Shown piece after piece: positions 1 through 31,972 of a stretch of DNA of 64,000 nucleotides (its first letter is position 1; the number at the start of each line of letters is the position of its first letter). Origin of the DNA: a virus. The DNA is taken from positions 1 through 64,000 of IMG/VR virus record IMGVR_UViG_3300032116_015796. The stretch is one strand, 5' to 3'. The position numbers were made by a program, and so were the translations under genes. Below the pieces are notes generated by a model. The model searched no databases, was not told the origin of the DNA, and was given only the letters and a program-made list of their open reading frames with translations.

Positions 1-445
1 AATGGTGTTGGATTGGAAGTTATCCCCAATGGTGTTGTATTGGAAGAAATCTCCAATGGTGTTGTATTGGAAGTTATCCCCAATGGTGTTGTTAACGCCC
101 GACCCAATGTTGTTTTGATAGAAGTTACCCCCAATGGTGTTGGATTGAAAGTTAATCCCAATGGTGTTGTATTGGAAGTCATTCCCAATGGTGTTGGATT
201 GGAAGATATCCCCAATGGTGTTGGATTGGAAGTTATTCCCAATGGGGTTGGATTGGAAGTTATCCCCAATGGTGTTGTATTGGAAGTTATCCCCAATGGT
301 GTTGTTAACGAAGTCATTCCCAATGTTGTTTTGATAGAAGTTACCCCCAATGTTGTTTTGATAGAAGTTACCCCCAATGGTGTTGTATTGGAAGTCATTC
401 CCAATGGGGTTGGATTGGAAGTTATCTCCAATGGCGTTGAAGTTG
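1..445 (-). repeat. 27-nt tandem repeat encoding the NTIGDNFQ[YS] solenoid
   Basis: About 17 tandem units of 27 nt (one is 24 nt) run from the left edge to about 445. On the + strand each unit begins AATGGTGTTG. Units are near-identical in DNA, with alternating variants (Y or S at the last position; an NNIGGNFYQ variant occurs in pairs). Upstream in the gene the same 9-residue register continues but the DNA has diverged. This suggests recent expansion at the distal end. Confidence 0.9.
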
Positions 446-1959
446 AATCCATCACAAGTATTAGATGAAAAATTGTTTCCAATTCTATTACCACTAAAAT
501 TATTTGTCCCAATAGTTAAATTGGTTCCAATAGTATTATTTCCAAAAACGTGTCCAATATTATTTTCGTAAAATTGTGAATATATGGTGTTATTATTATA
601 TCCGTTCCCGATTAAATTACGATAAAATTGTGAATAACTTTCATTACCATTATATCCATTACCAATATCGTTATTATAGAAGTCATTATAAATTTTATTA
701 TTATTAAACTGATTTCCTATTTCATTATTTTGAAAATCCCCGTTAGTGTAAACATTATCTCTAAAGTCATTTCCGATATTATTCCTATAAAAGGACCCAC
801 CAAGTAAAATATTAAACTCAAAATCACTACCAATTCGATTATTATTAAAATTTGACGTAATATAATTATTATTAAAGTTTTCCCCAATTATATTACCATC
901 AAAATCATCATTTGTTGAGTTGTTATAAAAACTATCACCTATTTGATTATTATCACAATCATCATTAAATGTGTTATTATAAGAACCATTACCAATGGTA
1001 TTGTTTCTAATTGCACCGTCAAGAAAAACATTGTTTGCCAAAAGAAAATCTCCTGTACCTTGTTCGATAAATAAATTGGCTTGGTTACCAATATAGTTGT
1101 TAACCGCACCATCAATAGCATCACCAAATGTTGTGTATTCAAAAACTTGGTCTTGCCTTACATTAGGTTGGTAATAACTCATTATACCATCATCATTTCC
1201 AAAATAATAAGGTGAATTACTGGTTTCATTTATTGTTACACCTGATATGATAGCCAAAGAATCACTCACAACAGATATAACTTCAAAAAATGAGGGATTT
1301 AAATTTTGTATCGAAACAATCGACCCTGAACCAAAATTTGAGTTAAATGTTGTACCAGTATCACCATATAATACACCAGTTGTCCCTGTTAAACCACTTA
1401 TTCCAACAAGACCACCTAATGGACTATTTTCTTCATATGAATACCCACGATATCTTTTAAATAAAATACTTCTGTTATCATAATCAGTTCTATTATTAAA
1501 GTTATCAATTCTTTCGGTAATTCTACCTTTTGCAAAACTATTCGTTATTTCAGTATTATTCCAAGTTATATCATATGATATTTTATCTTGTGGGTGTAAT
1601 GTTGAGTATACCGTAGGTGAGAATCCTGTTGTGGATACCGCCAATAATAAAATTGGTTCTGTTGTTCCTGTTTTATAGTTACCCGTTGTAATAGGGGTTT
1701 TAGTATTATCGTAGTTTGGTTGGTCATAACAAGTTTGAAAATCGGTAATTAAATAATATCCACCAGGTACTAAAGTTCCTCCTGTATATAATGAATATAA
1801 TTCATCGTAAGTTACTACTTCATAAGTTCCACCACCTGTTGATAGACCTGAATAAGGAATATGAAAAGTAAACCCACTTTGTTCAATAGCAAATAATGAA
1901 TTACTTGTTATACCTGTTGAAAGTGATAATTGACCTATTGTTTTTCCTGAAAGTATCAT
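1..1959 (-). CDS. Nonapeptide-repeat solenoid virion protein (tail fibre/adhesin-like), 3' end outside window
   Basis: From an ATG at 1959 the minus strand stays open for 653 codons to the left edge, so the C-terminus is missing. The first ~260 residues form a non-repetitive N-terminal part (begins MILSGKTIGQLSLS) that may attach to the virion. From about residue 300 the protein becomes Asn-rich with a nine-residue rhythm, N-x-x-I-G-[DN]-x-F-x, loose at first and then almost perfect (NTIGDNFQY type). Such periodicity suggests a beta-solenoid shaft, as in many phage fibres; the fold is inferred. It is the last visible gene of a minus-strand run of virion adhesins, 45 bp downstream of a PT-linker protein, and has its own upstream TATTTAT-type motif. 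I do not recognise a specific family. The long open frame on the opposite strand over the repeats is a by-product of the repeat. Confidence 0.8.
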   Translation of the reverse strand, partial: MILSGKTIGQLSLSTGITSNSLFAIEQSGFTFHIPYSGLSTGGGTYEVVTYDELYSLYTGGTLVPGGYYLITDFQTCYDQPNYDNTKTPITTGNYKTGTTEPILLLAVSTTGFSPTVYSTLHPQDKISYDITWNNTEITNSFAKGRITERIDNFNNRTDYDNRSILFKRYRGYSYEENSPLGGLVGISGLTGTTGVLYGDTGTTFNSNFGSGSIVSIQNLNPSFFEVISVVSDSLAIISGVTINETSNSPYYFGNDDGIMSYYQPNVRQDQVFEYTTFGDAIDGAVNNYIGNQANLFIEQGTGDFLLANNVFLDGAIRNNTIGNGSYNNTFNDDCDNNQIGDSFYNNSTNDDFDGNIIGENFNNNYITSNFNNNRIGSDFEFNILLGGSFYRNNIGNDFRDNVYTNGDFQNNEIGNQFNNNKIYNDFYNNDIGNGYNGNESYSQFYRNLIGNGYNNNTIYSQFYENNIGHVFGNNTIGTNLTIGTNNFSGNRIGNNFSSNTCDGFNFNAIGDNFQSNPIGNDFQYNTIGGNFYQNNIGGNFYQNNIGNDFVNNTIGDNFQYNTIGDNFQSNPIGNNFQSNTIGDIFQSNTIGNDFQYNTIGINFQSNTIGGNFYQNNIGSGVNNTIGDNFQYNTIGDFFQYNTIGDNFQSNTI

Positions 1960-2004: not shown

Positions 2005-3687
2005 TTAACAAGAACCTGAAAATGTTAATGGGAACTGACAATCAAACGCGATAGTCCCTCCAGGACCTGTACCAACATATGTGTAAGTTCCGTCTGAAAA
2101 TATTAAACCGACAACACTTGTTGACCCGTTAAAATCAGTTATAGTATCATTAAGTTGTATTTGTAAAGTTTCTGGTGTTTGTATTAGTTGTAGTGAATTC
2201 GAATTTATTGATGTGGCGCCATTCCACAATGATGGGACTACAATGTTTCTAACACAATTAGGTGTTAATGTTGGGGTCGGTGTTGGGGTCGGTGTTGAAG
2301 AGATTGGGATAGTCGTATAAGATGGTGCTAAATTTGCTCCTAAATCAATTGAAACTGAAACAGTGGTTGTTTGTGAAAAAGGTGAATCAAAAGAACCACC
2401 AAAAATATTCCACCCTAAGAATTGATATCCTGGTTGTGGAACTGATTGAATACTATAAGACTGATTTTTATTTATTGTAAGTGTAGTGTCTGTTGTATAA
2501 GTAACCCCATCGAAAATTATTGATTGTCCTCCATTTATAGTTTGTATATATAAAGTTAATTCCGCTTGAGGTGTTGTTGAGGATGTTGGTGTTATTGTTG
2601 GTGTTGGTGATGGAGTCTCAGTATTTGTTGGTGTTGGTGTTGGTGTTGGAGTCTCAGTATTTGTTGGAGTAGGAGTTGGAGTTTCAGTATTTGTTGGAGT
2701 AGGGGTTGGAGGAACTTCAAATTGAATTTGAGTTGCCAAAATCGATATTGGAAAATCATTTGGTGAAATATTTCCAACAAATAGTTCTGCAGTTTTATTA
2801 AGTGAATCATAAGCTAATGATGGGTTTGTTACAATTGCTTGACCAACAACTTGATTTGGTAACATTATAACATTTGCCGTTACATCAATTGTTCCTCCAC
2901 CAACAAGTCCCAATCTAACAGTTAAAGGAATTGTTACATTGTAATTAATAGCGAAGTTAGAGTTTACGGTAAAAGTTGTAACCACAGAACCGCTAGATAT
3001 TTCGGTTGAAATTGTGTACTCAATTTCAGGGTCAACAAACATTAGATATTCATTTTCACCAACCTCAATATACTCATCGTTTTCAGTAATTATAGGATTA
3101 ATTAATTGTTGTATTGTTGTAGTTGTAGTTGTTGTAGGATTAAATGTAGTTGTAGTTGTTGTAGGATTAAATGTAGTTGTGGTTGTTGTAAAATTTGGGG
3201 TAGGTGTTGGTGGTGGACAAGTTGGACAACTTGGACATGGTGAAGTAGTGGTGGTTGTTGTAAAAGGCCCGTTTATACAACAAGGGAACTCTGATACATA
3301 ACAACTATCGTATGGTAAATCATCGGCAATGAAAGATTCTTGTATGTTGATGTAAAGTTTTTCTCTTATAGGTAAAATTAATACCCCATCATCATTTCTT
3401 AACATGAATTGACCTTCATATCGACCAACTTTATTAGTATCTCTATTTTGAAACTGATAATAAATGTAATATTCTGGTTCTGCGTTTGGGTCTATAAAAG
3501 TTTTCTCCACAAACCCTGCAGGTCTTGATGTTACTTTTGGAATACCTGTTGCAGTATCAACCATAGAAAAGAATATTGCAGACAATTCTATGGTCTTCAT
3601 AAAATTATCGAAATCACTTCTACCGTCTTTAACTACTTGTAATTTTAATAAAGGAAGAGTAGCATTTTTTTTAATGAAAAATTCCAT
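2005..3687 (-). CDS. Virion protein with poly-Thr and Pro-Thr linkers (tail/adhesin-like)
   Basis: 560 residues. The N-terminal ~140 residues (MEFFIKKNATLPLLKL...) look like a globular attachment domain. A CPSCPTCPPP stretch and three poly-Thr blocks separated by FNP follow, then a beta-rich domain, a TPTPTPTNTE linker (about 330-375), an InlB/Flg_new-like repeat domain (residues ~380-460, 'PGYQFLGWNIFGG'), a second short PTPT linker and a C-terminal beta domain ending in Cys. Ser/Thr/Pro-rich linkers of this kind are typical mucin-like spacers and possible O-glycosylation sites, which is an inference. It lies directly downstream of glycosyltransferase genes on the same strand and upstream of the solenoid protein. 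Length and composition suggest a virion adhesin; no exact homologue is recognised. Confidence 0.75.
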   Translation of the reverse strand: MEFFIKKNATLPLLKLQVVKDGRSDFDNFMKTIELSAIFFSMVDTATGIPKVTSRPAGFVEKTFIDPNAEPEYYIYYQFQNRDTNKVGRYEGQFMLRNDDGVLILPIREKLYINIQESFIADDLPYDSCYVSEFPCCINGPFTTTTTTSPCPSCPTCPPPTPTPNFTTTTTTFNPTTTTTTFNPTTTTTTTIQQLINPIITENDEYIEVGENEYLMFVDPEIEYTISTEISSGSVVTTFTVNSNFAINYNVTIPLTVRLGLVGGGTIDVTANVIMLPNQVVGQAIVTNPSLAYDSLNKTAELFVGNISPNDFPISILATQIQFEVPPTPTPTNTETPTPTPTNTETPTPTPTPTNTETPSPTPTITPTSSTTPQAELTLYIQTINGGQSIIFDGVTYTTDTTLTINKNQSYSIQSVPQPGYQFLGWNIFGGSFDSPFSQTTTVSVSIDLGANLAPSYTTIPISSTPTPTPTPTLTPNCVRNIVVPSLWNGATSINSNSLQLIQTPETLQIQLNDTITDFNGSTSVVGLIFSDGTYTYVGTGPGGTIAFDCQFPLTFSGSC

Positions 3688-3697
3688 CCAATCTATT

Positions 3698-3711
3698 TTA
3701 TTCTATAAATA
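3698..3711 (-). promoter_or_regulatory. Candidate late promoter motif TATTTATnnATAAA
   Basis: Minus strand TATTTATAGAATAA preceded by G; the core ends 17 nt before the ATG at 3687. Same class as the other TATTTAT motifs. Promoter role inferred from position and recurrence. Confidence 0.45.
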
Positions 3712-3735
3712 CTTTACTTGTATAAAATAAACAGA

Positions 3736-5442
3736 TTAACTTTCTTTTCTTAATTTTCCATCATAGTGGTCAAATCGATTATGTTCAGTTGGTGTGAGTA
3801 ATAATAATCCTGATGATAAATTCCCTTTTATTGTTTCTTGAAACATGTGACTCATCCAAGTTTGTTCAAATGGATGACCCCACTTTGTTTCCAAGAACAT
3901 TTTTTTGTTACCTTCTTTTGAAACTATCTGAGGCCAATTACAATAATATACCTCTCCTAAAGCGTACGGAACATCTTTATGTATTTTAATCTTTGTAAAA
4001 ACTGTGTTTGGAGCATCAGGGTCTAAACCTAATTGTGGTAATGTTGGTTTTTCAGTCCAATGAGTTTCCCTGAAATTTTGTGGTACGTTATACCAACTCC
4101 ATTGAGTTGAGTTATTACCGAAAAATTCTGTGAAATTAAACTTTAAAAAATCTAATTCTTCTTTTTTAATAATTTCTAAAGATTTGTTAAACAAATTATT
4201 AACATATCTGTTAAAACCGTTTTTACAAGTTTCTCCAGGTTTTGGGTAAAAGAACATATCATCTTCAAAAAATAACATATATTCTAATTTTGTTTCATCA
4301 AAATGTTCTGCAATCCATTGTCTTCCACCACATATTCCTAAGTTATCCATTTTTATGTGGGTAAATCCGTAATCTTTACAAAGTTTTACATATTCAGGAG
4401 TTGTTGACAAATCAGTTGAGTTATCTAACAGGAATTTTTCTGTTTTATCTAAAAAGTCAGAATCATAATCTTCCATAGATTTAATTAAAGTCCTAAACTG
4501 ATTTGGACTATTAAAAGTTAAAACGTATAAACCTACCCCCTCAATTTGATTTTGTTTTATTGAATTTATTTTTTTAAGAATGTCTTTAGCGTCTTGTTTT
4601 TTTTGACCTTGTGTTTTAGTCACTAAAGAATCATTTTTCAAGTCTTCAAAAAACTTACCCACTAAACCATTTCCTTCAATTTCGAAATAGTTTATTAAAT
4701 TATGGTTTTTATATAACATTATTGAGAAGACAGATTCTTCAGTTCCCATATAACCTTTGGACAAAGTATCCTTCAATATAGAATAATATATTGTGTTAAT
4801 CTCACTTATACTATCTTTAGGTCCTCCAAAAAAACCTCCTCTTGGAACTAATTTTACATCATTACCCGCCCATTCATTTATTTTAGGATAACTAAAACCA
4901 TGGATTTCGTTATTTGCAATATATGGAAAACATACAAATGAAAATTTATTAATGTATTTGGTTAATTTGTCAAGTACTTTATCGTGTGTAAAATAACCTT
5001 GGTGAACGGTATTGGTAAGTCCCGCGTCAATCCAAAACATGTACTTAGAGTTGAACCTATCCAATAGTTTAGCATCGTGTAATAGAAAAACTTTTGACAT
5101 TACCAACGGATTGTACATCTCTAACTGAGCTTGGGTAGAATCTTTTAACCATCCAGCCTGATTAAACCATTTAGGGTCTTTTCTTATTTTTTGAATTAGT
5201 GGGTAAAATTCGTTTGTTTTAAACCAAGACTGATTTCTAACAATGAATTGAGTATTTGATTTATCTCTATGATGCCAAACAAATGACTCTAATTCAGGTT
5301 CTCCAAAAATAATCATTTTATTTTCAACCTTAAGTAATTGAGAAAACTTATCTTTATAGTGGTCAAACGACCTAGACCAACCTTCCTTAAGGTTATTTCT
5401 ACCTATATCCCATAACCCTGTTACAAGTGTAATTTCAGACAT
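3736..5442 (-). CDS. Two-domain glycosyltransferase (HtrL/YibB-like N-terminus plus GT-A C-terminus)
   Basis: 568 residues. The N-terminal ~270 residues resemble the HtrL/YibB/WlaTC family: 'LVTGLWDIGR' at the start, a 'QLEMYNPLVMSKVFLL' stretch and 'YMFWIDAGLTNTVH'. These are likely glycosyltransferases acting on surface sugars. From ~residue 295 a second GT-A (GT2-like) domain begins with 'GVGLYVLTFNSPNQFRTL' and carries a DxD-type metal site in 'MLFFEDDMFFYP'. The fusion suggests a bifunctional enzyme adding two sugars. The start overlaps the stop of the upstream methyltransferase gene by 1 nt, so the two are probably co-translated. Substrate unknown; because it lies between virion adhesin genes, modification of virion protein is plausible but unproven. 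Confidence 0.75.
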   Translation of the reverse strand: MSEITLVTGLWDIGRNNLKEGWSRSFDHYKDKFSQLLKVENKMIIFGEPELESFVWHHRDKSNTQFIVRNQSWFKTNEFYPLIQKIRKDPKWFNQAGWLKDSTQAQLEMYNPLVMSKVFLLHDAKLLDRFNSKYMFWIDAGLTNTVHQGYFTHDKVLDKLTKYINKFSFVCFPYIANNEIHGFSYPKINEWAGNDVKLVPRGGFFGGPKDSISEINTIYYSILKDTLSKGYMGTEESVFSIMLYKNHNLINYFEIEGNGLVGKFFEDLKNDSLVTKTQGQKKQDAKDILKKINSIKQNQIEGVGLYVLTFNSPNQFRTLIKSMEDYDSDFLDKTEKFLLDNSTDLSTTPEYVKLCKDYGFTHIKMDNLGICGGRQWIAEHFDETKLEYMLFFEDDMFFYPKPGETCKNGFNRYVNNLFNKSLEIIKKEELDFLKFNFTEFFGNNSTQWSWYNVPQNFRETHWTEKPTLPQLGLDPDAPNTVFTKIKIHKDVPYALGEVYYCNWPQIVSKEGNKKMFLETKWGHPFEQTWMSHMFQETIKGNLSSGLLLLTPTEHNRFDHYDGKLRKES

Positions 5443-6071
5443 TATTTTTTATATTTACAAACCCAAACTACTTTGGAAAATTTATTTTGATTATAAAATT
5501 CTAATCCGTTCTCTTTGGATGCTTCGGAAATATCATCCTCAACAATCTCCAACCAATTCCATATCTTATTATTAATCTCCTTTTCAAATGTAGATTTATC
5601 CACACAATAGTCATGTGCCATTATAAAATCACCTTGTTTAATAAACTTAGACAATAAATTGAATTCTCCTATCTTCCATCCTCCATCACAAAGTACAATT
5701 GTAGTACCCTCTGAACGAATGAAATTTTTTATATCTTCAGGTACGTCTTTAAAGTCCCCAAAAATATCCTCGACCCTAACATCAATACCTTTTTTAACCA
5801 TGTCACTATACCAAGGTCTCGCACTTATATCAAAAGTTAGGATTTTTGTATTCAATTCTAATTCTTCAGTGATTGTTTTTAAAAACATTGTAAACCCACC
5901 TAAAGCAGTACCTATCTCTAATATTCTTTTTGGTTTTACTTCTTTAATAAAATCATAAAAAACTTGATAAACATCATGGAATTGTTGAGCTGAGTGCCCA
6001 TCAAAAGAAGACAAACTGTCGTTTGCCAATAAATTTGTTTTTTTTGTTATTCTTTGTTCTATAGTTTTCAT
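5442..6071 (-). CDS. Class I SAM-dependent methyltransferase
   Basis: 209 residues. Motif I is clear, 'RILEIGTALGGFTMFLK' at about residues 50-66, followed by 'ILTFDISARPW' (acidic residue after beta-2), 'IVLCDGGWK' and 'GDFIMAHDYC'. The layout resembles cephalosporin-hydroxylase-like or Methyltransf_24 enzymes found in surface-polysaccharide clusters. It sits in a chain of glycosyltransferase genes with 13 nt to the upstream gene and 1 nt overlap to the downstream one. Probable role: O-methylation of a sugar, or SAM-dependent modification of a glycan made by its neighbours. Substrate cannot be read from the sequence. Confidence 0.75.
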   Translation of the reverse strand: MKTIEQRITKKTNLLANDSLSSFDGHSAQQFHDVYQVFYDFIKEVKPKRILEIGTALGGFTMFLKTITEELELNTKILTFDISARPWYSDMVKKGIDVRVEDIFGDFKDVPEDIKNFIRSEGTTIVLCDGGWKIGEFNLLSKFIKQGDFIMAHDYCVDKSTFEKEINNKIWNWLEIVEDDISEASKENGLEFYNQNKFSKVVWVCKYKK

Positions 6072-6084
6072 AATAAAAATATAA

Positions 6085-6792
6085 TTAAAATCTTATGTGT
6101 GTAACTCCTGTATTAGCAACAAACTTAAAAAAATTTCGTAACTCAAACATTTTTTTCCAGTCCATAACCATTTTAGCATCCACTGCTGACATACCAATCT
6201 CAACCCCCTCAGCGAATGCCCATATATCATTTTTAACCCCAAACTCATTTCGTTCTTTCCATTTTTGAACGAAGACTTTTAATTTTTGATTATTTTTAAA
6301 AACTAAAAATTGTTCATTTACTACTTGAGCGTTATCATAAAAATTAGTTTTTAATAAACCGTAAGGTTCTACTTTGTGTCTCCAAAAACACTTCTCAATG
6401 TCCCACTTACTACTACCTATTGAGTGAGGTCTTTCGTAGATAAAATCAAACTGTGATTTGTTCATCGAATTTAAAAAATCAACAAATTTATTTTCACTGT
6501 AACCATCATGAATATCCCAATCCGCATCAAAAAAAATAATAAACTCAAAATTTCTTTTTGAGCATTCCATAACAGGAATATATTTTAAATTATAGTTAAA
6601 GTAATTTTTTATTGTGGTAGTCTCTTTTTTATCAAAGTTGATAAAATCAACGTTTTCAATTTCAACAAAGGGACAATCGGTTACTATTATTATTTTATGA
6701 CCTTTAGAAATCTTATTTAAATTTCTCGCAAAATTACAAGCACTTAAAAAATATTTTTTACCTATCGCAATTGTTGTAAAAACGTAACTCAT
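6085..6792 (-). CDS. GT-A fold glycosyltransferase
   Basis: 235 residues. It starts 'MSYVFTTIAIGKKYFLSACNFARNL', typical of nucleotide-diphospho-sugar transferases of the GT6/GT8-like kind, and has a DxD motif in 'FIIFFDADWDIH' near residue 95. 'NEQFLVFKNNQKLKVFVQKW' matches the acceptor-side region of such enzymes. Its start overlaps the upstream gene's stop by 4 nt. Predicted cytosolic, using a nucleotide sugar; donor and acceptor unknown. Confidence 0.7.
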   Translation of the reverse strand: MSYVFTTIAIGKKYFLSACNFARNLNKISKGHKIIIVTDCPFVEIENVDFINFDKKETTTIKNYFNYNLKYIPVMECSKRNFEFIIFFDADWDIHDGYSENKFVDFLNSMNKSQFDFIYERPHSIGSSKWDIEKCFWRHKVEPYGLLKTNFYDNAQVVNEQFLVFKNNQKLKVFVQKWKERNEFGVKNDIWAFAEGVEIGMSAVDAKMVMDWKKMFELRNFFKFVANTGVTHIRF

Positions 6793-7481
6793 AATTTATC
6801 CGCAATTTTTAATGTTTCGGGATTAGACGGACCGTTATCATGTACAATAATTGGGTTAAACCTTTCGATAAAAATTTTACCATTTTTTATCTGAACGTGT
6901 TTTTTAGAATTTAAAGTACTCATAAAAAATTCACAGTCAGAATCAATTATAATATCATCATTCAGTAAGAACTGAATTGTCCATTTACCTTGGTCATCAA
7001 TTCCTGTATCATAAACATTATTAATAATACTTTTCATATGATTCAGTACTTTTTCAGTGTATCCGAAATAAGTTCCTGAGTTCAAATATCTGTATTCTGA
7101 GTTTATTTGTTTCTTATTATATAAATGGGTATACGAATTGGGTGGCCATAAACATTGTTCTGCACCCATAATAATTGAACAATTTTTTGATTTAAATTTT
7201 TCGATTATATTTTTTGGTGAAGAATAGAAATTTGTGTCTGTAGCGTCTAAGAAAAGTATAAATTCATATTTACCTAAAATATTTTGTTCTAAATACTCAT
7301 ACAATTTTACTATTTTATAAAAATATAGTTTATCGTAATAAGAATCACTATTACAAATACCATTGTATCTTACTACGTGTATATCTGAATTCTCAAAATA
7401 GTTTAAAGCATTCTTAACAAAAATAGGGGTATAATTTGAGGGGTAGTCAAATAATACTGTGATTAATGCAATGTTTTTCAT
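6789..7481 (-). CDS. PLOD/LH3-type glycosyltransferase
   Basis: 230 residues. The order of motifs follows the glucosyltransferase domain of procollagen lysyl hydroxylases (PLOD/LH3): 'FILFLDATDTNFYSSP' (D-x-x-D metal site, ~residues 76-91), 'IIMGAEQCLWPPNS' (the AE..CWP motif), 'YRYLNSGTYFGYTEKV', 'DDQGKWTIQFL' and a late 'IVHDNGPSN'. Known members glucosylate hydroxylysine-linked galactose; homologues occur in giant viruses. A target on protein rather than lipid is therefore conceivable here but not shown. It overlaps both neighbours by 4 nt. Confidence 0.75.
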   Translation of the reverse strand: MKNIALITVLFDYPSNYTPIFVKNALNYFENSDIHVVRYNGICNSDSYYDKLYFYKIVKLYEYLEQNILGKYEFILFLDATDTNFYSSPKNIIEKFKSKNCSIIMGAEQCLWPPNSYTHLYNKKQINSEYRYLNSGTYFGYTEKVLNHMKSIINNVYDTGIDDQGKWTIQFLLNDDIIIDSDCEFFMSTLNSKKHVQIKNGKIFIERFNPIIVHDNGPSNPETLKIADKL

Positions 7482-8722
7482 AAATTACCGACTAATCTCT
7501 CACACCAACCTTTAGATACTGAGTGAGGCCAAACAACCCAATATTTAGGTTTTTCTTTAGCGTTAAACTCTCTCCATATTTTACAGTACTTGTCAGGGTC
7601 GGTCATCATTCTGTTTATTTCATTAATATCAGCATCTCTTCTGAAAATTGTTTCATCTTTTTCATCATGGAAAGCAACAACCCAAAAATCGTAATCTGTT
7701 TCAGGTACTTGACTAAAACTAACATCAATACAGTGTTTAAATATTGAAAGGAAACTATCTTCCCATTCTTCTTCTGTTTGGTAAATTGTTGGATTAGGGG
7801 GGTAGTTTTTATCTAAAGTGTATTGTTGTACGGCTCTTTTAGAAAATCTTAAACCTGAGTAAATCTCATAATCTTTTAAGGTTCTCTCAGTTCCGAAACC
7901 GTGGTTTCCGAAATCAATGGCGGTTTCTCCATCCATACCAAATAGTTGTCTATTCTTTTTATGAGAACTTTCATTTTTCTTAAACCACTCTTTATCGTCA
8001 TCCCACTGTTTGGTTCTATTTTTTCTTGTGTATTCATGCCAAATAACAGTTCTATGTGGATGAAACAAATCATACCCGTGAGTAAATGCTCTTACCGCAA
8101 TTGATATCTCTTCCCCATGAAAATAAAATTCAGGGTCGTGTTGTACTTCTTTAGCAAATTGTCCTAAAGTAAAACAGAAGTGTGCAGAATAAAATCTTGC
8201 GGGTACTGGTTCTGTTAATTGTCCCCATCCAGGGATTGTTTCAGGTAAGAAAAATACCGCTCCTTCGGGAATAAATCTATCAAAAGCCATTCTCCATGGT
8301 TCTTTAACTCTACCTTGAGGGTCGTTATCAGGGTCAAATGATGAAACATAAGAAGTTAGTAAAGGTTTTTCAAACCCTTTTTCTTGTAATTGTTTAATCA
8401 TGTTAATTAGTGTCTCATCCCAATCCTTATCAAATCTCATATGAGAATCTAATTGTAATGTGTACTCTTCGTCTTGATATAATTGTTGTACTTTATTTCT
8501 TGCCCAACAAACTCCTTTTGATTCTGAGTACAATACATTTTCGACTCTAAATCTATGGTCAAGTTCAAATTCTGTTAAGTCGTCAAATTTGTCATCTGGA
8601 TGATATTGTCGACATATTCCTACTCTTAAATTTTCAGGGTATTTTGCATTTTCCAACATGTTATTTAATGTTGGTATAAGTTGTGGGTCTCTATAAGAAG
8701 CAATTTGGATAAAAATTTTCAT
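7478..8722 (-). CDS. GT60-like polypeptide GlcNAc-transferase family glycosyltransferase
   Basis: 414 residues. It matches the GlcNAc glycosyltransferase family (Pfam Glycosyltransferase (GlcNAc), CAZy GT60): 'IFIQIASYRDPQLIPTLNNM' at the N-terminus, 'NLRVGICRQYHP', 'SKGVCWARNKVQQLYQDEEY', 'TLQLDSHMRFDKDWDETL' (D-x-H metal site), 'FYFHGEEISIAVRAFTHGYD' and 'GNHGFGTERTLKDYE'. Characterised GT60 members add GlcNAc to hydroxyproline of Skp1 (Dictyostelium) or to Thr of mucins (Trypanosoma cruzi). That makes it notable next to Thr/Pro-rich virion proteins. It is the first of five glycan genes downstream of the BspA-like adhesin gene, and no TATTTAT motif precedes it, so it is probably read through from upstream. 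Confidence 0.82.
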   Translation of the reverse strand: MKIFIQIASYRDPQLIPTLNNMLENAKYPENLRVGICRQYHPDDKFDDLTEFELDHRFRVENVLYSESKGVCWARNKVQQLYQDEEYTLQLDSHMRFDKDWDETLINMIKQLQEKGFEKPLLTSYVSSFDPDNDPQGRVKEPWRMAFDRFIPEGAVFFLPETIPGWGQLTEPVPARFYSAHFCFTLGQFAKEVQHDPEFYFHGEEISIAVRAFTHGYDLFHPHRTVIWHEYTRKNRTKQWDDDKEWFKKNESSHKKNRQLFGMDGETAIDFGNHGFGTERTLKDYEIYSGLRFSKRAVQQYTLDKNYPPNPTIYQTEEEWEDSFLSIFKHCIDVSFSQVPETDYDFWVVAFHDEKDETIFRRDADINEINRMMTDPDKYCKIWREFNAKEKPKYWVVWPHSVSKGWCERLVGNL

Positions 8723-8769
8723 TTTTATTTTAATGATAAAAAAATAAAAACAAAACTCAATAAATCTTT

Positions 8770-10596
8770 TTAAATTCCTCCTCCGTCAGTTATTGTCCAT
8801 AATTTTGTTCCTGTTAGGTATGTTCTACTTGCACCTGCAGTTGAAATCGTGTATATAGAGCTTCCTCCATCAAATGACACTCCTGATTGTAATGAGCCAC
8901 CTAAAGATGCCCACCCATTTAGTAAAGAATCATAGTTTACGGTTGATAATGTTATACCGTTAAACATTGCCGTCATATTTGTTACATTAGAAACATTCCA
9001 TCCACCTAAATTTTGGTCAAATAAATTGGCAGATTGGAACATAGAGCCCATATCGGTTACAGACGAGACATCCCAACTACTAATATTTTGGTTAAAGTTT
9101 GTTGTGTTACCAAACATCGTAAACATATTGGTAACAGACGAAACATTCCAACCACCAATTGGTTGATTAAAAGGGGTATTATAGAACATATACTCCATAT
9201 TTGTAACTACTGAAACATTCCATAAATTTATACCTAAAGAACCTCCGTTGTTAAAACTTGTAGCATTACCAAACATAAAATACATATTTGTAACTGAAGA
9301 TACATCCCATAAACTAATATCTTGATTGAATACACTCGCTTGTGCAAACATTGTAGACATATTAGTAACCGAAGAAACATCCCAATTTCCAAGTGGTTGA
9401 TTAAATGATATTGCATTTGTAAACATACCCCCCATATTTGTAACATTAGAAACATTCCATGTATTAATATTTTGATTAAACATATTTGTACCACCAAACA
9501 TTACGAGCATTGACGTTACATTTGACACGTCCCAACTTCCAATATATTGATTAAAGTTAGACGCATTCTGAAACATAGTACCCATATTGGTTACAGATGA
9601 AACATCCCAACTATCCATATTATTAACAGTTGTTAAACTTGAACATGATGCGAACATTGAATATAAGCTTGTAATACCTGTCAAATCAGGTGTATCAGTA
9701 ACTCCCGTTAAAACCAAGTTAGTACACGCATTAAACATCGATGCGTTTGAATTAGACTCCCCTCTTAAAGGTCCCCATTTTATAATTTCTTTTATATTAT
9801 CTTTATATAATGTTGCATGAGTCGCAAAATTCCAACCTTCAATTGTTCCTGTAATTGTAATTGTATAATCACCAGGTGACGCGTAAGTGTGAGTTCTATT
9901 GGCGTATGAGTTAACAGATGTATTACCATCACCCCAATTAATTATTCCCGAATAAGTTCCTGTTGGTGAGTACGGAAGTTCAATTGTAGTTGACGCAGAC
10001 CATACTGAAATAAATGCAAAAGGTAATGGAGATGGAGTTGGTGTTAACGTAGGAGTCACAGTTGGGGTAGGGGTTGGTGTCATTGTTAGGGTAATTGTGG
10101 GTGTTGGTGTCGGTGAAAGAGGGGGTGGTAATGGTTCACAAGCACCCATAACACAAGGAATTCCAACCGATATTAAAACCCCATCCTCTGCGGTAGGTAA
10201 TTTCCCACAAAATAATAATTCGGTTGTACCGTCAATTAACCCATAGAATATTGTCCCGTTACATTGAGTATAACTAAAATCTTTCTTTACTGTGGTTATA
10301 TTACTAAACTGAATACAATTACATTGAGCAATTGTTGGTGTAGGAGTCATTGTTGGTGTCATTGTTGGTGTAGGAGACGGACAACTATACAGTTGAAAAA
10401 ATTCACAACCGTTAGAATCTATTAATTTAACTATAACAGAACTAACACTATCTAAAGGATAAACTAAAGTATATAGAAAATTTGGAGGAATATTAATCCC
10501 GACACCTGCCGACGCACAATATGTTAGAGTCGAATCACAAACATATACATCGTAAGGTCCCGTACCAGTTGCTCCTGTTATTTCTATTGTCTGCAT
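8770..10596 (-). CDS. BspA-like repeat adhesin with PKD-like domain and Pro-Thr linkers
   Basis: 609 residues from the ATG at 10596 (MQTIEITGATG), chosen because an upstream in-frame ATG lies inside the preceding gene and encodes only a frame-shadow (HQHQQ...). Order: small N-terminal domain (1-70), PTPTMTPT linker, a Cys-containing domain, a second TPTPT linker, a PKD-like domain (~185-240; 'IINWGDGNTSV' and 'HTYASPGDYTITITG'), then nine ~25-residue repeats of the type [SG]W[DN]VSSVTNMxxMFxxAxxFNQ. These match the 'surface protein 26-residue repeat'/DUF285/BspA-like family used for adhesion. It is 4 nt after the preceding PT-rich gene. Likely a tail-fibre tip or capsid adhesin; virion location is inferred. 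Confidence 0.8.
   Translation of the reverse strand: MQTIEITGATGTGPYDVYVCDSTLTYCASAGVGINIPPNFLYTLVYPLDSVSSVIVKLIDSNGCEFFQLYSCPSPTPTMTPTMTPTPTIAQCNCIQFSNITTVKKDFSYTQCNGTIFYGLIDGTTELLFCGKLPTAEDGVLISVGIPCVMGACEPLPPPLSPTPTPTITLTMTPTPTPTVTPTLTPTPSPLPFAFISVWSASTTIELPYSPTGTYSGIINWGDGNTSVNSYANRTHTYASPGDYTITITGTIEGWNFATHATLYKDNIKEIIKWGPLRGESNSNASMFNACTNLVLTGVTDTPDLTGITSLYSMFASCSSLTTVNNMDSWDVSSVTNMGTMFQNASNFNQYIGSWDVSNVTSMLVMFGGTNMFNQNINTWNVSNVTNMGGMFTNAISFNQPLGNWDVSSVTNMSTMFAQASVFNQDISLWDVSSVTNMYFMFGNATSFNNGGSLGINLWNVSVVTNMEYMFYNTPFNQPIGGWNVSSVTNMFTMFGNTTNFNQNISSWDVSSVTDMGSMFQSANLFDQNLGGWNVSNVTNMTAMFNGITLSTVNYDSLLNGWASLGGSLQSGVSFDGGSSIYTISTAGASRTYLTGTKLWTITDGGGI
8945..9615 (-). repeat. Nine 75-nt repeats encoding the W[DN]VSxVTNMxxMF unit
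   Basis: Nine consecutive ~25-residue units; one is 24 and one 29 residues. The WDVSSVTNM and MF..A..FNQ cores are conserved and the positions between vary. At DNA level only the core is shared. Confidence 0.85.
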
Positions 10597-10600
10597 AATT

Positions 10601-11074
10601 TTACGAACATTGTGTTGGAGTTGGTGTTGTAGTTTTTGTTGGTGTTGGTGTTGGTTTAGATGGTAAGCAACCACAAGGGTTTGTACAACTTACAGTTGGT
10701 GTTGGTGTCGGAGTTGGTGTTACTGTATTTGTTGGTGTCACGCTTGGTGATGGACTTATACAAGGTGTTAATGTCGGGGTGACTGAAGGTGTTAATGTCG
10801 GAGTTGGTGTTTGTGTCTTTGTTGGGGTAATTGTAGGTGTCGGTGTAGGTGTTGGTCTTGGTACGTTTAAATAATACACACAATTATTGAACAATGTTGT
10901 TATAGTATATATACCATATATTTCTTGTGGTGGATTAAGTAATCCTGCATTAAAAGTAAACGGTAATTCGTGGTCACCTAAATTCAAAACTAATTCAGTC
11001 CCCTGTGGATTGAACAAAATGTTTGCAATCTCACCATCATAATTTATACTTTGTATTGTAATAATTTGATTCAT
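10601..11074 (-). CDS. Small virion-type protein with long Pro-Thr linker
   Basis: 157 residues. Residues 1-72 form a compact beta-rich domain ([16 protein letters not shown]...). The rest is a [17 protein letters not shown]-type linker interrupted by a short Cys-containing segment '[11 protein letters not shown]'. It sits between the papain-domain protein (3 nt upstream) and the BspA-like adhesin (4 nt downstream). The same kind of linker follows the N-terminal domain of the next gene, so this may be a duplicated attachment module or a subunit of the same appendage. Function unknown. Confidence 0.65.
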
Positions 11075-11077
11075 TAA

Positions 11078-14000
11078 TTAAAAATTGTTTTCTATTGCTA
11101 GACAGACTTCACCGTTCTCGTTTATTAATCTCTGCATATCAGAGAAACTAATAAAGGCATAACCATTTTTGCCCCAAGAGCGTCCCCAACTGTTTTTAAT
11201 TCTAAATAGTTTAGTTCTTAAATCAACCCCATTTATAACATAAGCATGACCACCAACTATTCTTCCATTCACCTTTATTAATCCATTTTTATTTGGTCTA
11301 AACATACCTTGATACCAATTAGTACCAACTACAACAGGTCCTTTAACTAAAACTGTATTAATCAAAACCGCAAGGTCATATGTCCATAAATAAGATGATA
11401 TTCTTCCTGTGTTTTTCAAAAACTTAGCTCCACCTCTTACCGATGTTCCGTCATAGTTTTCGCCAAACCACTCATCTAATTTTTGAGCTTGTTTATAAAT
11501 TGTTGTTGGGTTTACTATCGGGGGGACTCCTCCGTGTTTAATAGGTCCATCTTCAATCCAATGAGCCCAAGCGTAACCAACACATTGTGGAGTACTTCCT
11601 TGATTTCCCCACCATTCCTCAGAATCCCAGTATTTTGAAGTCAATGTTGTTGGTCTGAATTGCAATTTATTTTCGATTAAGAACAATCTATCTCTTTTAT
11701 CTTCAATATAAACTCTTCCTAATGGTAAAGGTTCGGTCGTTGTTGTAGTTGTGGTAGGATTGAAAGTTGTAGTAGTTGTTGTTGGGTTAAATGTTGTTGT
11801 GGTTGTTGTAGGATTGACAGTAGTAGTTGTTGATGTTGGTGTATCCCCTGTTGTGTAATTAAAATCATCTGGTAGACATACTAAAGTTGAGCAATCAGGA
11901 CAATCAGGATTAAACATCCTAAAAGTGTTTTTTAACAACAAGAAGTTATGTTTCACTTCAGGAGCCGAAAGAGGTGTGATATACATTCTAAATTGTGAAA
12001 TCGCGCCTTCAAAAGTTCCTGCAAAATTTTGTTCTATTTGGATGTTAGTTTTTAATCCGTTTAAAGAAGTTCCTGTCAAATCATTAGTCGGGAAATTTTC
12101 AGGGTCTTGTTGGTAAGGTCCGAAATATAAAATTTCTTCTCTAGTCACCAAAGTCAAAGTATTTGTATTAGACGGATTTGTTATTACGGGAGTGTCATTC
12201 CAATGAGCAATTAGTACTCCTGATTCATTATTTAAGTTAGTTAATATTTGAGGTTCACCAAAACAATCTATATAGTCAATGTCAGTTGTTACATCACCAA
12301 TTGAATAGTTCCAAACTGAACATGCTCTGAATGTTAAGTTTTCTCTTAACCCTTGAGTTCCTCCACCCCAAGACACGTTGAAAGGAACTCCAACTTGTTT
12401 TTCTTTATCGGTGTTTAGTGCTCTTGGGATTATTTCCTCAAAATCTTCTATAGTCCAAAATAACTTACCATTGATATAAATTTTAAGTCTTCCTTTTCTA
12501 TATTTTTTTTCTAATAACCATTTCTCATTAAGATTTACAATTTCAATTTTTTCCGCCTCTTCCGCTTCAGGACGAGTATATGGTACGGTAATTAGTGAGG
12601 AAGTATTATTCGCTAAAGATTCTAAATATAACTTTTTAGTTATATCACCTAAACCTCCTCGATACCATAAATCACAATCATCAAACCAAGTATATCTTTC
12701 CCATACGGCATCGATTTGAAACCAATGTTCCAAATCTAACCATGCGGGGTTAATTTCAAAACAATCAGGATATATTGGAGGTGAACAGTAATCTAAAACA
12801 GTATAACCAGTTGTATAGGTTACCCCTGTAGTAGAACAAGAACCTGTTGTTTCACAGTCTCCTGTAAATAATAAAACTCTAACCCCTATCTGAGGGTTTT
12901 TAGGTTCTCCACATAATCTAAATGATAAAGCGTTAGACATTGCATCATATAAAGGGTCTTTTTCACAAGTGTCCTCAATTGACGTAAATCCCGTATTAAC
13001 ATTACAAGGTAAACAATCATTACATGTATTACACTTAGTACATGAAGGTGTACAAACAGGTGGTAAAATGCAACCGTCAGATATTGGTGTAGGACTTGGT
13101 GTTGGAGTTGGCGTTGGAAAAATAATAGAATCACATTTATGTGTCTGACATTCCCACCCACACGATTCACATCTTATTTCTCCACATCCACATCCACATG
13201 AAATACTTTTTTGAGCATTACCCTTACACTTATCACAACCATAATTAACATGAGTGTCATGTATTCCTCCTTCAGACCTTGGTGGATAAACAAAAATACA
13301 ACGACTATTTGTTATTGTTTTGTTACAACAAGCACAAGTTGTTAAACCTGATAATGGGGTAGTTATACGAGTATATCCTGTGAAACAATTTGGAGTTCCG
13401 TCAGCATGATGATAAAATTTATTTTCGGCTCTTGTTCCAAAATAAAAGAAAGTGTTTTTATTATTAGGATAAATTTTATTTAATGTTGTCTCACCAGGTC
13501 CTGGAAAATATTCATTAATTAACCTTGGTTTCAATATCATTTCAACTGACCAACCTTTGTTCATCCTTTCAGGAAAAATATCATAATCATATCCGAACAA
13601 CCTATAAAATCCTTGATAGAATCCACCATATAGTTCATGGTATCTACCTTCAAACGGACTAAATTTACTTACCACTTCATAAAGTACAACGTCAGGAAAA
13701 CCTGAAAATCTAACAATATCATTACCTGTATTTGCGGTAACTTGAAAAAGTTTTAGTCTTCTGTCAAAACTTAATCTATCAAATTTTTGAGTGTTATTTA
13801 GTAAACCTTCAGTAAACGTTATTGTTTGTCCTGTCATATATTCCACAAGACCGTTATCAACTCCTGTTAATCCTATATCACAAGAAGTGGATGAGGACAA
13901 ACATTTTAAATCAATTTCTTTTGGGTTGTAATAATTTTGGGAAACAAAAACATTGTTTTTATTATAGTTTTTGTAAGTAAGAGTTAAATTCTGTGCAGTT

Positions 14001-14188
14001 TCAATATTATTAATGTCGAAATAAAAAGGTAATCTATTACCATGTGTTTGGGCAATTAAATAAGGAGAGAAAACAACCTCCTGATTAAAATCCATTTCAT
14101 CATTAGTCAATGACATATCATGTGTATCCAAAGATAACTTCGGAAACAAATTAGGTCTAGCATATTGATTTATATTTTGACTCGCCAT
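11078..14188 (-). CDS. Large virion protein with lectin-like region, Cys clusters and C-terminal papain-like (C1A) peptidase domain
   Basis: 1036 residues. The N-terminal ~770 residues look like a tail/adhesin body. 'GWSVEMILKPRL' and 'AISQFRMYITPLSAPEVKHN' are typical of LamG/concanavalin-like domains, and a Cys-rich insert (~265-400) with many CxxC pairs may bind metal. A poly-Thr/FNP linker (~790-822) joins a C-terminal papain-like domain: Gln863 and Cys869 in 'QGSTPQCVGYAWAHW' (the Q-to-C spacing of papain), His981 in 'GGHAYVING' and Asn999 in 'RIKNSWGRSWGKNGYAFIS'. The triad and oxyanion Gln all appear present, so activity is plausible. Possible roles are self-cleavage of the fibre or degradation of host surface protein (inference). 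It is first in its minus-strand gene string, behind its own TATTTAT motif. Confidence 0.85.
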   Translation of the reverse strand: MASQNINQYARPNLFPKLSLDTHDMSLTNDEMDFNQEVVFSPYLIAQTHGNRLPFYFDINNIETAQNLTLTYKNYNKNNVFVSQNYYNPKEIDLKCLSSSTSCDIGLTGVDNGLVEYMTGQTITFTEGLLNNTQKFDRLSFDRRLKLFQVTANTGNDIVRFSGFPDVVLYEVVSKFSPFEGRYHELYGGFYQGFYRLFGYDYDIFPERMNKGWSVEMILKPRLINEYFPGPGETTLNKIYPNNKNTFFYFGTRAENKFYHHADGTPNCFTGYTRITTPLSGLTTCACCNKTITNSRCIFVYPPRSEGGIHDTHVNYGCDKCKGNAQKSISCGCGCGEIRCESCGWECQTHKCDSIIFPTPTPTPSPTPISDGCILPPVCTPSCTKCNTCNDCLPCNVNTGFTSIEDTCEKDPLYDAMSNALSFRLCGEPKNPQIGVRVLLFTGDCETTGSCSTTGVTYTTGYTVLDYCSPPIYPDCFEINPAWLDLEHWFQIDAVWERYTWFDDCDLWYRGGLGDITKKLYLESLANNTSSLITVPYTRPEAEEAEKIEIVNLNEKWLLEKKYRKGRLKIYINGKLFWTIEDFEEIIPRALNTDKEKQVGVPFNVSWGGGTQGLRENLTFRACSVWNYSIGDVTTDIDYIDCFGEPQILTNLNNESGVLIAHWNDTPVITNPSNTNTLTLVTREEILYFGPYQQDPENFPTNDLTGTSLNGLKTNIQIEQNFAGTFEGAISQFRMYITPLSAPEVKHNFLLLKNTFRMFNPDCPDCSTLVCLPDDFNYTTGDTPTSTTTTVNPTTTTTTFNPTTTTTTFNPTTTTTTTEPLPLGRVYIEDKRDRLFLIENKLQFRPTTLTSKYWDSEEWWGNQGSTPQCVGYAWAHWIEDGPIKHGGVPPIVNPTTIYKQAQKLDEWFGENYDGTSVRGGAKFLKNTGRISSYLWTYDLAVLINTVLVKGPVVVGTNWYQGMFRPNKNGLIKVNGRIVGGHAYVINGVDLRTKLFRIKNSWGRSWGKNGYAFISFSDMQRLINENGEVCLAIENNF

Positions 14189-16927: not shown

Positions 16928-18148
16928 ATGTCTAAAAAAATTAATGTTTTAATACTTCCATCAGATAAAACTGGTGTTGGTAAATTCCGCTCTGTAGACC
17001 CTCATATTATGCTACAAAACTTATATCCTGATGATTTTCATGTGGATATTGATTATGAACCTAGAATAAATGACCCTAATTTTTGGAAAAAGTACCAAAT
17101 CGTACACGTTCACAGAAACATTGGAGTTAACTACGACCAAACTCCTCATTTAATTAAATCTCTTAAAGAGATGGGTATCATTGTGATTGTTGATATTGAT
17201 GATTATTGGTTACCAACTAAAGAACATCCAATACACTCTATAATTTTACATGATAAAATTCATGAGAAAATTGTCGCTAATCTTAGAGTTGCAAGTTACG
17301 TAACTACAACAACAAAAATATTTGCTGACGAAATTCGCAAATTTAATAAAAATGTTGTCGTTTTACCGAACGCAATTAATCCTGATGAACCTCAATTCAA
17401 CCAACCAACAGAAGAATCTGATAGAATTAGAGTGGGTTGGTTAGGGGGGTCTTCCCACTTACACGATTTAAAACTTTTAGACGGTTTCATCTCAAAAAAT
17501 GGTTCTGAGATTAACAATAAATTACAATATGTTATTTGTGGTTTTGATACAAGAGGTTCTGTAACTGAAATAGACCAAAAAACAGGTCAAAGAAAACAAA
17601 GACCTATTCGACCTGAAGAAACTGTTTGGGCAAGGTATGAGGAAATTTTTACAAACAAATACGGCATAATTGATGAAAACTATAAAAAGTTCTTATTAGA
17701 ATTTAAAGAACAAGAATATGTTGGTGACAGTACGTTACCGTATCGAAGAGTTTGGACAAAACCTGTTAATCAATATGCAGCAAATTATTCTAAATTTGAT
17801 ATTTCATTAGCACCAATTAAAAATCACATTTTTAACAGAATGAAATCTCAACTTAAAGTTATTGAAGCGGGATTTTATAAAAAAGCATTAATTGCATCCC
17901 AAGTAGGTCCTTATACAATTGATTTAAAACACGCGTTAAAAGAAGGTCAATTTACTGATGGTAATGCTTTGTTAGTTCAAGAGGCACGAAATCATAGTGA
18001 TTGGTCTAAGTACATTAAAAAATTGGTACAAAACCCAAATTTAATTACTGACTTGGGAGAAAGACTATATGAAACAGTTAAGGATACCTATCACTTGAAA
18101 AACGTGACAATAACAAGAGCAGAATTTTATAAATCTATTGTTAACTAA
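16928..18148 (+). CDS. GT-B (GT4-like) glycosyltransferase
   Basis: 406 residues. N-terminal Rossmann half with 'VLILPSDKTGVGKFRSVDPH' (glycine-rich donor entry loop), 'IVHVHRNIG' and 'VIVDIDDYW'. The C-terminal half has 'RVGWLGGSSHLHDL' and a later 'FDISLAPIKNHIFNRMKSQLKVIEAGFY' region (split here: FDISLAPIKNHIFN, then KSQLKVIEAGFY), equivalent to the E-x7-E donor site of GT4 enzymes. First gene of the long plus-strand glycan operon, just after a terminator. Likely transfers a sugar from a nucleotide donor; the acceptor is unknown. Confidence 0.8.
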   Translation: MSKKINVLILPSDKTGVGKFRSVDPHIMLQNLYPDDFHVDIDYEPRINDPNFWKKYQIVHVHRNIGVNYDQTPHLIKSLKEMGIIVIVDIDDYWLPTKEHPIHSIILHDKIHEKIVANLRVASYVTTTTKIFADEIRKFNKNVVVLPNAINPDEPQFNQPTEESDRIRVGWLGGSSHLHDLKLLDGFISKNGSEINNKLQYVICGFDTRGSVTEIDQKTGQRKQRPIRPEETVWARYEEIFTNKYGIIDENYKKFLLEFKEQEYVGDSTLPYRRVWTKPVNQYAANYSKFDISLAPIKNHIFNRMKSQLKVIEAGFYKKALIASQVGPYTIDLKHALKEGQFTDGNALLVQEARNHSDWSKYIKKLVQNPNLITDLGERLYETVKDTYHLKNVTITRAEFYKSIVN

Positions 18149-18149
18149 T

Positions 18150-21400: not shown

Positions 21401-21402
21401 AT

Positions 21403-26744: not shown

Positions 26745-26746
26745 AA

Positions 26747-27370: not shown

Positions 27371-27387
27371 TAAACTCAATTTGAATT

Positions 27388-28176: not shown

Positions 28177-28187
28177 AAAAAAACAAT

Positions 28188-30899: not shown

Positions 30900-30903
30900 A
30901 AAA

Positions 30904-31968: not shown

Positions 31969-31972
31969 AATT

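What the first reader, a model, noticed from the sequence alone, without database searches (positions are those of the whole stretch)
2005..14188. Possible phage protein-glycosylation system: GT60 and PLOD-type glycosyltransferases among mucin-like virion proteins
Seen: the gene at 7478-8722 has the motif series of the GT60 polypeptide GlcNAc-transferase family, 6789-7481 has the PLOD/LH3 motif series, and two more glycosyltransferase genes and a methyltransferase gene follow, all overlapping. On both sides in the same orientation lie virion-type proteins with poly-Thr (TTTTTTFNPTTTTTT) and TPTPTPT linkers. Known: GT60 members modify Thr of T. cruzi mucins, which carry poly-Thr/Pro repeats, or hydroxyproline in Skp1; PLOD enzymes glycosylate hydroxylysine. 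Inference: these enzymes decorate the linkers, giving a glycan-coated, mucin-like phage appendage.
Basis: partly seen in the sequence, partly recalled or inferred. Interest (0 to 1): 0.88.

Follow-up and report, generated by a model that had tools for sequence, protein, structure and literature searches.

The report
Phage sugar-coating gene cassette
A virus of bacteria carries a set of sugar-attaching enzymes, one of them related to the enzyme that starts the sugar coat of parasite mucins, next to genes for mucin-like (threonine/proline-rich) surface proteins; in dozens of related viruses the first and last enzymes stay the same while the enzymes between them are swapped, so these viruses probably wear interchangeable sugar coats.

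Summary
7478-8722(-) is a GT60-family protein (PF11397, E=1e-71), 6789-7481(-) a PLOD-type transferase (E=4e-20); a DxD GT-A-like protein, an O-methyltransferase and a YibB-type two-part enzyme follow in one operon among poly-Thr and TPTPTP proteins. Relatives turn this into a system. In 74 environmental phage loci GT60 is the first and YibB the last gene of a cassette; between them lie 1-8 swapped genes (44 families, 38 layouts): GT25, GT10, GT11, GT34, GT7, PLOD, sugar methyl-, acetyl- and carbamoyl-transferases. None of 235 such proteins has a membrane segment. Thr/Pro-dense proteins flank the cassette (21/30 just before, 23/36 just after, 0/41 just behind GT60; 24/800 genes in relatives). 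The gene after YibB encodes a baseplate-anchor-like domain, usually with a Thr/Pro tail; all 54 loci carrying that domain with 10 kb upstream have GT60. Best explanation: cytosolic, GT60-started O-glycosylation of the phage's own Thr/Pro adhesins, with exchangeable glycan extensions. A hydroxyproline/hydroxylysine route is unsupported (no hydroxylase found). Thr/Pro proteins also occur in relatives without detected GT60, and GT60 genes in Acidobacteriota lie elsewhere, so the acceptor is inferred. No modified residue has been seen here.

The parts
11078..14188 (-). 1036-aa protein with (T)n-FNP-(T)n linker and C-terminal papain-like peptidase; first gene of the operon, conserved also in GT60-negative relatives
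   Evidence: PF00112 1.2e-6, phrog_16701 3.6e-55; synteny
10601..11074 (-). 157-aa protein with TPTPTP tract; candidate acceptor
   Evidence: homologues
8770..10674 (-). 634-aa protein, TPTPTP tracts plus DUF285 (BspA-like) repeats; gene immediately before GT60; candidate acceptor and adhesin
   Evidence: PF03382 1.3e-83; position -1 Thr/Pro-dense in 21/30 dereplicated loci
7478..8722 (-). GT60 glycosyltransferase, first enzyme of the cassette, predicted polypeptide alpha-GlcNAc (or other HexNAc) transferase with DSH metal motif
   Evidence: PF11397 1.3e-71; D92-S93-H94 invariant in 39 homologues; fold like GalNAc-T2/T4
6789..7481 (-). PLOD/LH3-type GT domain without hydroxylase; variable middle gene
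   Evidence: PF25342 3.6e-20; R699 and LH3 matches
6085..6792 (-). GT-A-like protein with invariant DxD; variable middle gene
   Evidence: 11-sequence alignment
5442..6071 (-). sugar O-methyltransferase (RMNT_CmcI/Methyltransf_24 type); variable middle gene
   Evidence: PF04989 3.2e-9
3736..5442 (-). YibB-type two-part transferase, last enzyme of the cassette, conserved partner of GT60
   Evidence: PF09612 3e-16; last enzyme in 74 loci; paired or fused with GT60 in bacteria
2005..3687 (-). 560-aa protein: conserved ~140-aa baseplate-anchor-like N-domain, poly-Thr runs, TPTPTP tracts; partner of the cassette and candidate acceptor
   Evidence: 45-sequence alignment; model pLDDT 82.5; phage baseplate fold hits; 54/54 loci with this domain have GT60 upstream
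1..1959 (-). 3'-truncated repeat protein (N-x-I-G-x-x-F-x-x-N repeats); in the position of the 930-975-aa gene that follows the anchor gene in relatives
16928..32776 (+). second glycan island: conserved transferases (16928, 19907, 30904, 31973) and a variable interior (DegT, hexapeptide acyltransferases, WbqC, BKACE, FkbM, GT2)

Best explanation
The segment is a phage cassette for cytosolic protein O-glycosylation aimed at the phage's own appendage proteins. GT60 puts the first sugar (probably alpha-GlcNAc or another HexNAc) on Thr (or Ser) of the Thr/Pro-dense, mucin-like regions of the proteins encoded just before and just after the enzymes. The YibB-type enzyme makes a conserved second step, and the swappable enzymes between them (here PLOD-type, GTx and an O-methyltransferase) extend and cap the glycan. 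At least one acceptor (2005-3687) is anchored to the virion through a baseplate-type N-domain, so the result is a sugar-coated fibre whose glycan type can be exchanged by replacing the middle genes. Shown: gene content, conserved order, linkage, lack of membrane proteins in the cassette. Inferred: catalytic activities, acceptor residue, order of steps, virion location, biological role (stiffening, protease protection, receptor masking or binding).
For: Family assignments. Cassette architecture GT60 > 1-8 variable genes > YibB in 74 loci, 44 middle families, 38 layouts, all 235 genes co-oriented, none with a membrane segment or Thr/Pro-dense region. Middle genes are sugar-decorating enzymes. 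Thr/Pro-dense genes sit at the cassette's edges: 21/30 just before GT60, 23/36 just after YibB, 0/41 just after GT60, versus 24/800 in GT60-negative relatives. Reverse search with the anchor N-domain: GT60 lies 2.5-8.8 kb upstream in 54/54 loci that hold 10 kb upstream, 28 after dereplication; no homologue in GT60-negative relatives. N-domain folds like phage baseplate proteins. GT60 fold search is dominated by mucin-type polypeptide GalNAc-transferases. No prolyl/lysyl hydroxylase family in 15 large records, so Thr/Ser is the likelier acceptor; T. cruzi GT60 acts on mucin Thr (PMC3769586). GT60-YibB pairs in four unrelated bacteria lie beside Thr/Pro/Ser-rich proteins with an RR signal-like N-terminus. 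XacN1, a phage with a homologous GT60-YibB pair, has at least two glycoproteins by proteomics (PMC5852040).
Against: No glycopeptide or enzyme assay. Thr/Pro linkers (including T6 runs) exist in related phages with no GT60 on contigs up to 100 kb, so the linkers do not need GT60. The anchor protein lacks a Thr/Pro region in about a third of loci. GT60 homologues in 13 Acidobacteriota (36-40% identical) have no YibB and no Thr/Pro neighbour. The fold search also returns teichoic-acid transferases TarS, TarP and RmlT. The baseplate fold match is moderate (E 1.4e-3, TM 0.48) and the GT60 model rests on 35 close sequences. XacN1's glycoproteins were not identified in the text I could read, and in XacN1 and RAS14 the nearest Thr/Pro-dense gene is 9 and 6 genes away.
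Confidence: 0.62

Rival explanations
1. The enzymes modify the host surface glycan (O-antigen, capsule or LPS), for superinfection exclusion or host masking; the Thr/Pro proteins are plain flexible-linker adhesins that happen to share an operon.
For: A jumbo-phage survey reads phage transferase clusters this way (PMC7824862). GT25 is a family named for LPS biosynthesis and the YibB/HtrL family is known from LOS loci. Some bacterial GT60 genes neighbour GT9/RfaE-type genes.
Against: No flippase, polymerase or any membrane protein among 235 cassette proteins. The obligate partner is a baseplate-anchor-like protein in the same operon. The GT60 fold is closest mainly to polypeptide transferases.
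Confidence: 0.15
2. The enzymes glycosylate hypermodified phage DNA, as in T4.
For: T4-like phage by head genes; weak hit of the YibB-type protein's C-terminal domain to phrog_842, beta-glucosyl-HMC-alpha-glucosyltransferase (8.7e-4).
Against: The thymidylate synthases of relatives keep the Asn and Cys motifs of true TS, so no dCMP-hydroxymethylase signature was found (dUMP-hydroxymethylase not excluded). Linkage is to structural genes, not nucleotide metabolism; enzyme content is highly variable.
Confidence: 0.05
3. Virion glycosylation is real, but the acceptor is another residue or domain (for example Ser/Thr in the anchor N-domain or the DUF285 repeats); the Thr/Pro tracts are only stiff spacers.
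For: Anchor proteins without a Thr/Pro region keep the GT60 cassette; Thr/Pro tracts persist without GT60.
Against: 39 of 41 dereplicated loci still have a Thr/Pro-dense gene in the same-strand run; unrelated bacterial GT60-YibB pairs also sit beside Thr/Pro/Ser-rich proteins.
Confidence: 0.15

Closest known systems
T. cruzi mucin-type O-glycosylation (GT60 pp-alpha-GlcNAcT on Thr; PMC3769586)
   Same: Starting enzyme of the same family (PF11397); Thr/Pro-rich acceptor candidates; variable extension giving diverse glycans
   Different: Phage genes, no Golgi or membrane anchor, one operon with the acceptor candidates; activity not shown
Skp1 cytosolic glycosylation (Gnt1, GT60, on hydroxyproline; PMC6939170)
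   Same: Cytosolic GT60 followed by stepwise soluble transferases
   Different: No prolyl hydroxylase family found in 15 large records; Thr-rich rather than single-Pro acceptors
Mycobacteriophage virion glycosylation (Freeman et al. 2023, cited through PMC12619734)
   Same: Glycans on phage structural proteins
   Different: There at the C-termini of capsid and tail-tube subunits; here a GT60-YibB cassette beside Thr/Pro appendage proteins
Mimivirus R699 / LH3 (PLOD) glycosyltransferases
   Same: 6789-7481 belongs to the same GT domain family with motif residues kept
   Different: No lysyl hydroxylase, no collagen-like acceptor seen; rare, exchangeable part of the cassette
Bacterial LOS/O-antigen loci with conserved ends and a variable middle
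   Same: Conserved bookends, swapped transferases, serotype-like diversity
   Different: No membrane steps; the linked acceptor candidates are virion-type proteins
Moraphages (aquatic Bacteroidota jumbo phages, PMC12619734)
   Same: Aquatic phages with Bacteroidota hosts and four core transferase groups; possibly the same or a neighbouring lineage (not tested)
   Different: GT60, YibB or a mucin-like linkage not mentioned in the passages read

Membership tests
GT60 (PF11397) | Whole-domain profile match above the curated cut-off | tested here: met
   242 bits vs cut-off 21, profile positions 97-350 in the best stretch plus the N-terminal stretch
GT60 (PF11397) | Putative metal motif (DxH type) conserved | tested here: met
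   D92 S93 H94 invariant in 39 sequences down to 54% identity
GT60 (PF11397) | Transfers alpha-GlcNAc to Thr or hydroxyproline of a polypeptide | not testable with these tools
   needs an enzyme assay
PLOD-type GT domain (PF25342) | Profile match and DxxD, W, DDQ, HxNGP motifs | tested here: met
PLOD pathway (hydroxylysine glycosylation) | Accompanying lysyl hydroxylase (2OG-Fe(II) oxygenase) | tested here: not met
   no PF13640 match in own record or 15 large relatives; other oxygenase families not searched
Skp1 pathway | Prolyl hydroxylase present | tested here: not met
   same searches
Mucin-type O-glycosylation | Thr/Ser/Pro-dense acceptor genetically linked to a polypeptide-transferase-like enzyme | tested here: met
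Mucin-type O-glycosylation | Glycans on the Thr/Pro region | not testable with these tools
   needs mass spectrometry
BppU-like baseplate anchor | Fold match of the N-domain | tested here: inconclusive
   best hits are phage NF5 baseplate and TP901-1 device (4v96), E 1.4e-3 to 5.6e-3, TM up to 0.48

The most novel reading that the evidence does not exclude
A widespread 'phage serotype' system: a GT60-YibB module with exchangeable glycan genes builds mucin-like, O-glycosylated baseplate fibres directly in the bacterial cytosol, and the same module in bacteria glycosylates Thr/Pro-rich proteins before Tat-type export. This would be a mucin-type protein O-glycosylation pathway shared by phages and bacteria, undescribed in the literature searched.
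Probability: 0.4. Interest if true: 0.88.

Novelty: new variant of a known kind. Interest (0 to 1): 0.74.

Why it matters
Virion protein glycosylation in phages is known in few cases and thought to be rare. Here a conserved two-enzyme frame with a swappable middle, found in hundreds of environmental matches (361 stretches for GT60), is bound to mucin-like appendage proteins. That would give phages exchangeable surface glycans comparable to bacterial serotypes, a prokaryotic counterpart of mucin-type O-glycosylation, and a source of soluble polypeptide transferases for glycoengineering. It gives concrete, testable acceptor predictions; the close form of the cassette was not found in any isolate phage record searched.

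Tried and rejected
Exact T5-FNP-T5 linker as a marker: only 12 stretches (11 contigs) in IMG/VR, 5 with GT60 against 1 of 22 portal relatives; suggestive but weak, as contigs are fragments. T7 DNA-pattern counts did not separate GT60-positive from GT60-negative records. Hydroxyproline/hydroxylysine route: no oxygenase found. DNA glycosylation: TS motifs are those of true TS. A Bacteroidota genome survey gave only one strong GT60 genome, the one already known, so the bacterial Thr/Pro link could not be widened there; the Acidobacteriota survey went against a general rule. No solved GT60 structure by sequence. No paper joining GT60 with phage was found.

Full report
What is there. The window is part of an 80,256-bp IMG/VR virus record. 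It is a T4-like tailed phage by its major head protein, portal, prohead protease and terminase; the nearest isolate terminases are only 26-28% identical and include Flavobacterium phages. Reading the minus strand from 14188 to 2005 gives: a 1036-aa protein with poly-Thr linkers and a papain-like C-terminus, a 157-aa TPTP protein, a 634-aa TPTP plus DUF285 protein, GT60, PLOD-type GT, a DxD protein (GTx), an O-methyltransferase, a two-part YibB-type enzyme, and a 560-aa protein with an N-terminal domain followed by poly-Thr and TPTPTP tracts.

Enzymes. GT60: PF11397 at 1.3e-71; the DSH motif and much of the domain are invariant in 39 homologues, down to 54% identity in jumbo phages. Its predicted structure (pLDDT 80.6) matches polypeptide GalNAc-transferases T1, T2, T4, T10 and T12, and also teichoic-acid transferases TarS, TarP and RmlT. 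So fold alone does not settle the acceptor. The PLOD-type protein matches Mimivirus R699 and LH3 and keeps DxxD, W, DDQ and HxNGP. GTx has an invariant D-x-D.

A cassette with fixed ends and a swapped middle. A search with GT60 gave 361 stretches in IMG/VR; the best 80 are 74-81% identical. In 74 of them GT60 is followed on the same strand by 1-8 genes and then the YibB enzyme. The 235 middle genes are all co-oriented, belong to 44 families in 38 orders, and none has a membrane segment by a hydropathy scan. Pfam names them GT25, GT10, GT11, GT34, GT7, GT2, PLOD, RMNT_CmcI and FkbM methyltransferases, GNAT, carbamoyltransferase and DegT. This is the pattern of a glycan locus with exchangeable extensions, but without any membrane step, so the glycan is most simply built directly on a soluble acceptor (inference).

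The acceptor candidates. After dereplication (41 loci), a Thr/Pro-dense gene (>=45% T+P in 40 aa) is directly before GT60 in 21/30 loci and directly after YibB in 23/36, never in the two places directly after GT60 (0/41 each); in GT60-negative relatives 24/800 genes are Thr/Pro-dense (Fisher p about 1e-22 for each edge, not corrected for relatedness). 39 of 41 loci have such a gene in the same-strand run; the two exceptions have few upstream genes. The gene after YibB shares a conserved ~140-aa N-domain (77% mean column identity) followed by poly-Thr/TPTP and varied C-termini, or by nothing, or directly by the papain-like domain. The N-domain model (pLDDT 82.5) finds phage NF5 baseplate and TP901-1 device proteins at the top, ahead of Ig-fold noise, with moderate scores. 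Searching in reverse with this domain, GT60 lies 2.5-8.8 kb upstream in 54 of 54 loci that hold 10 kb upstream (28 after dereplication); the nine loci without GT60 all end within 5.6 kb upstream. These are the best 80 of 485 matches to an alignment taken from GT60 loci, so distant copies were not sampled.

Controls that limit the claim. Portal relatives without a detected GT60 (G018, G023, G024, G025, G032, G015) still have the papain, TPTP and DUF285 genes with poly-Thr or TPTP tracts, but none of the anchor-domain or YibB genes. So Thr/Pro linkers are a general trait of these phages and the cassette is an addition; these contigs are fragments. In other phages and bacteria, GT60 comes paired with the same YibB enzyme (XacN1, RAS14, Saprospiraceae, Jiulongibacter, Gemmatimonas, a Neisseriaceae contig) and YibB and GT60 lie in one open frame in a Vicinamibacterales and a Vicingus contig. 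In four of these (L251, L255, L256, L263) the neighbour is a Thr/Pro/Ser-dense protein with an RR signal-like N-terminus; over the 21 loci outside the main phage group, Thr/Pro-dense genes are enriched within two genes of GT60 (10/75 against 5/192, p=0.0016). Against this, 13 Acidobacteriota GT60 genes at 36-40% identity have no YibB and no such neighbour; they lie beside GT9/RfaE-type genes and a conserved ~195-aa protein, or a PAAR-like 133-aa protein (these neighbour names rest on my reading of the sequences). GT60 alone is therefore not diagnostic; the GT60-YibB pair with Thr/Pro neighbours is the meaningful unit.

Chemistry. No 2OG-Fe(II) oxygenase (PF13640) was found in this record or in 15 large GT60-positive records totalling over 2 Mb, which argues against hydroxyproline and hydroxylysine acceptors and for Thr/Ser as in T. 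cruzi mucins (PMC3769586). The PLOD-type enzyme then most likely adds sugar to sugar (inference). Thymidylate synthases in the large relatives carry true TS motifs, giving no support to hydroxymethyl-cytosine glucosylation.

Independent experimental hint. The XacN1 paper reports at least two glycoproteins by proteomics and names ORF334 as one of two transferases that could make them (PMC5852040); ORF334 is the GT60 homologue found here and a YibB homologue lies four genes on. The glycoproteins were not identified in the text I could read.

Verdict. Existence of a conserved, recombining glycan cassette tied to mucin-like phage proteins: well supported. Acceptor being the phage's own appendage proteins: likely (about 0.75). 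Thr in the Thr/Pro tracts as the site: more likely than not (about 0.55). Known kind: phage virion protein glycosylation; new: the GT60-YibB frame, the exchangeable middle, and the anchor-domain partner.

Noticed in passing
window 16928-32776 (+): Second glycan island: transferases 16928, 19907, 30904 and 31973 are conserved in most portal relatives covering the region, while the genes between 19907 and the PhoH-like gene 28188 are replaced from phage to phage.
   Followed up: partly
window 24639-25469 (+): A beta-keto acid cleavage enzyme (BKACE, PF05853 1.8e-58) inside the phage glycan island, next to WbqC and acyltransferases; unusual for a phage.
   Followed up: no
window 57297-58436 (-): A Thr/Pro-rich gene inserted between portal and terminase; relatives carry different Thr/Pro or DUF285 genes, or none, at the same spot (G014, G015, G032, G033), so it is a second insertion point for such proteins.
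   Followed up: partly
window 1-1959 (-): Repeat protein with N-x-I-G-x-x-F-x-x-N units, cut by the contig end; in the position of a 930-975-aa gene that follows the anchor gene in relatives.
   Followed up: no
L255 7945-15142 (Jiulongibacter sediminis): Two GT60 genes (one only 29% identical to the window's) flank a Thr/Pro-rich protein with an RR signal-like start, followed by YibB: possible bacterial cytosolic O-glycosylation before Tat-type export.
   Followed up: partly
L319-L331 (Acidobacteriota): GT60 genes without YibB sit beside GT9/RfaE-like genes and a conserved ~195-aa protein, or beside a PAAR-like protein, suggesting a different acceptor for this branch.
   Followed up: partly
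L263/L294 (Vicinamibacterales) and L260 943-3111 (Vicingus): YibB and GT60 domains lie in one open reading frame, in support of a functional pair.
   Followed up: partly
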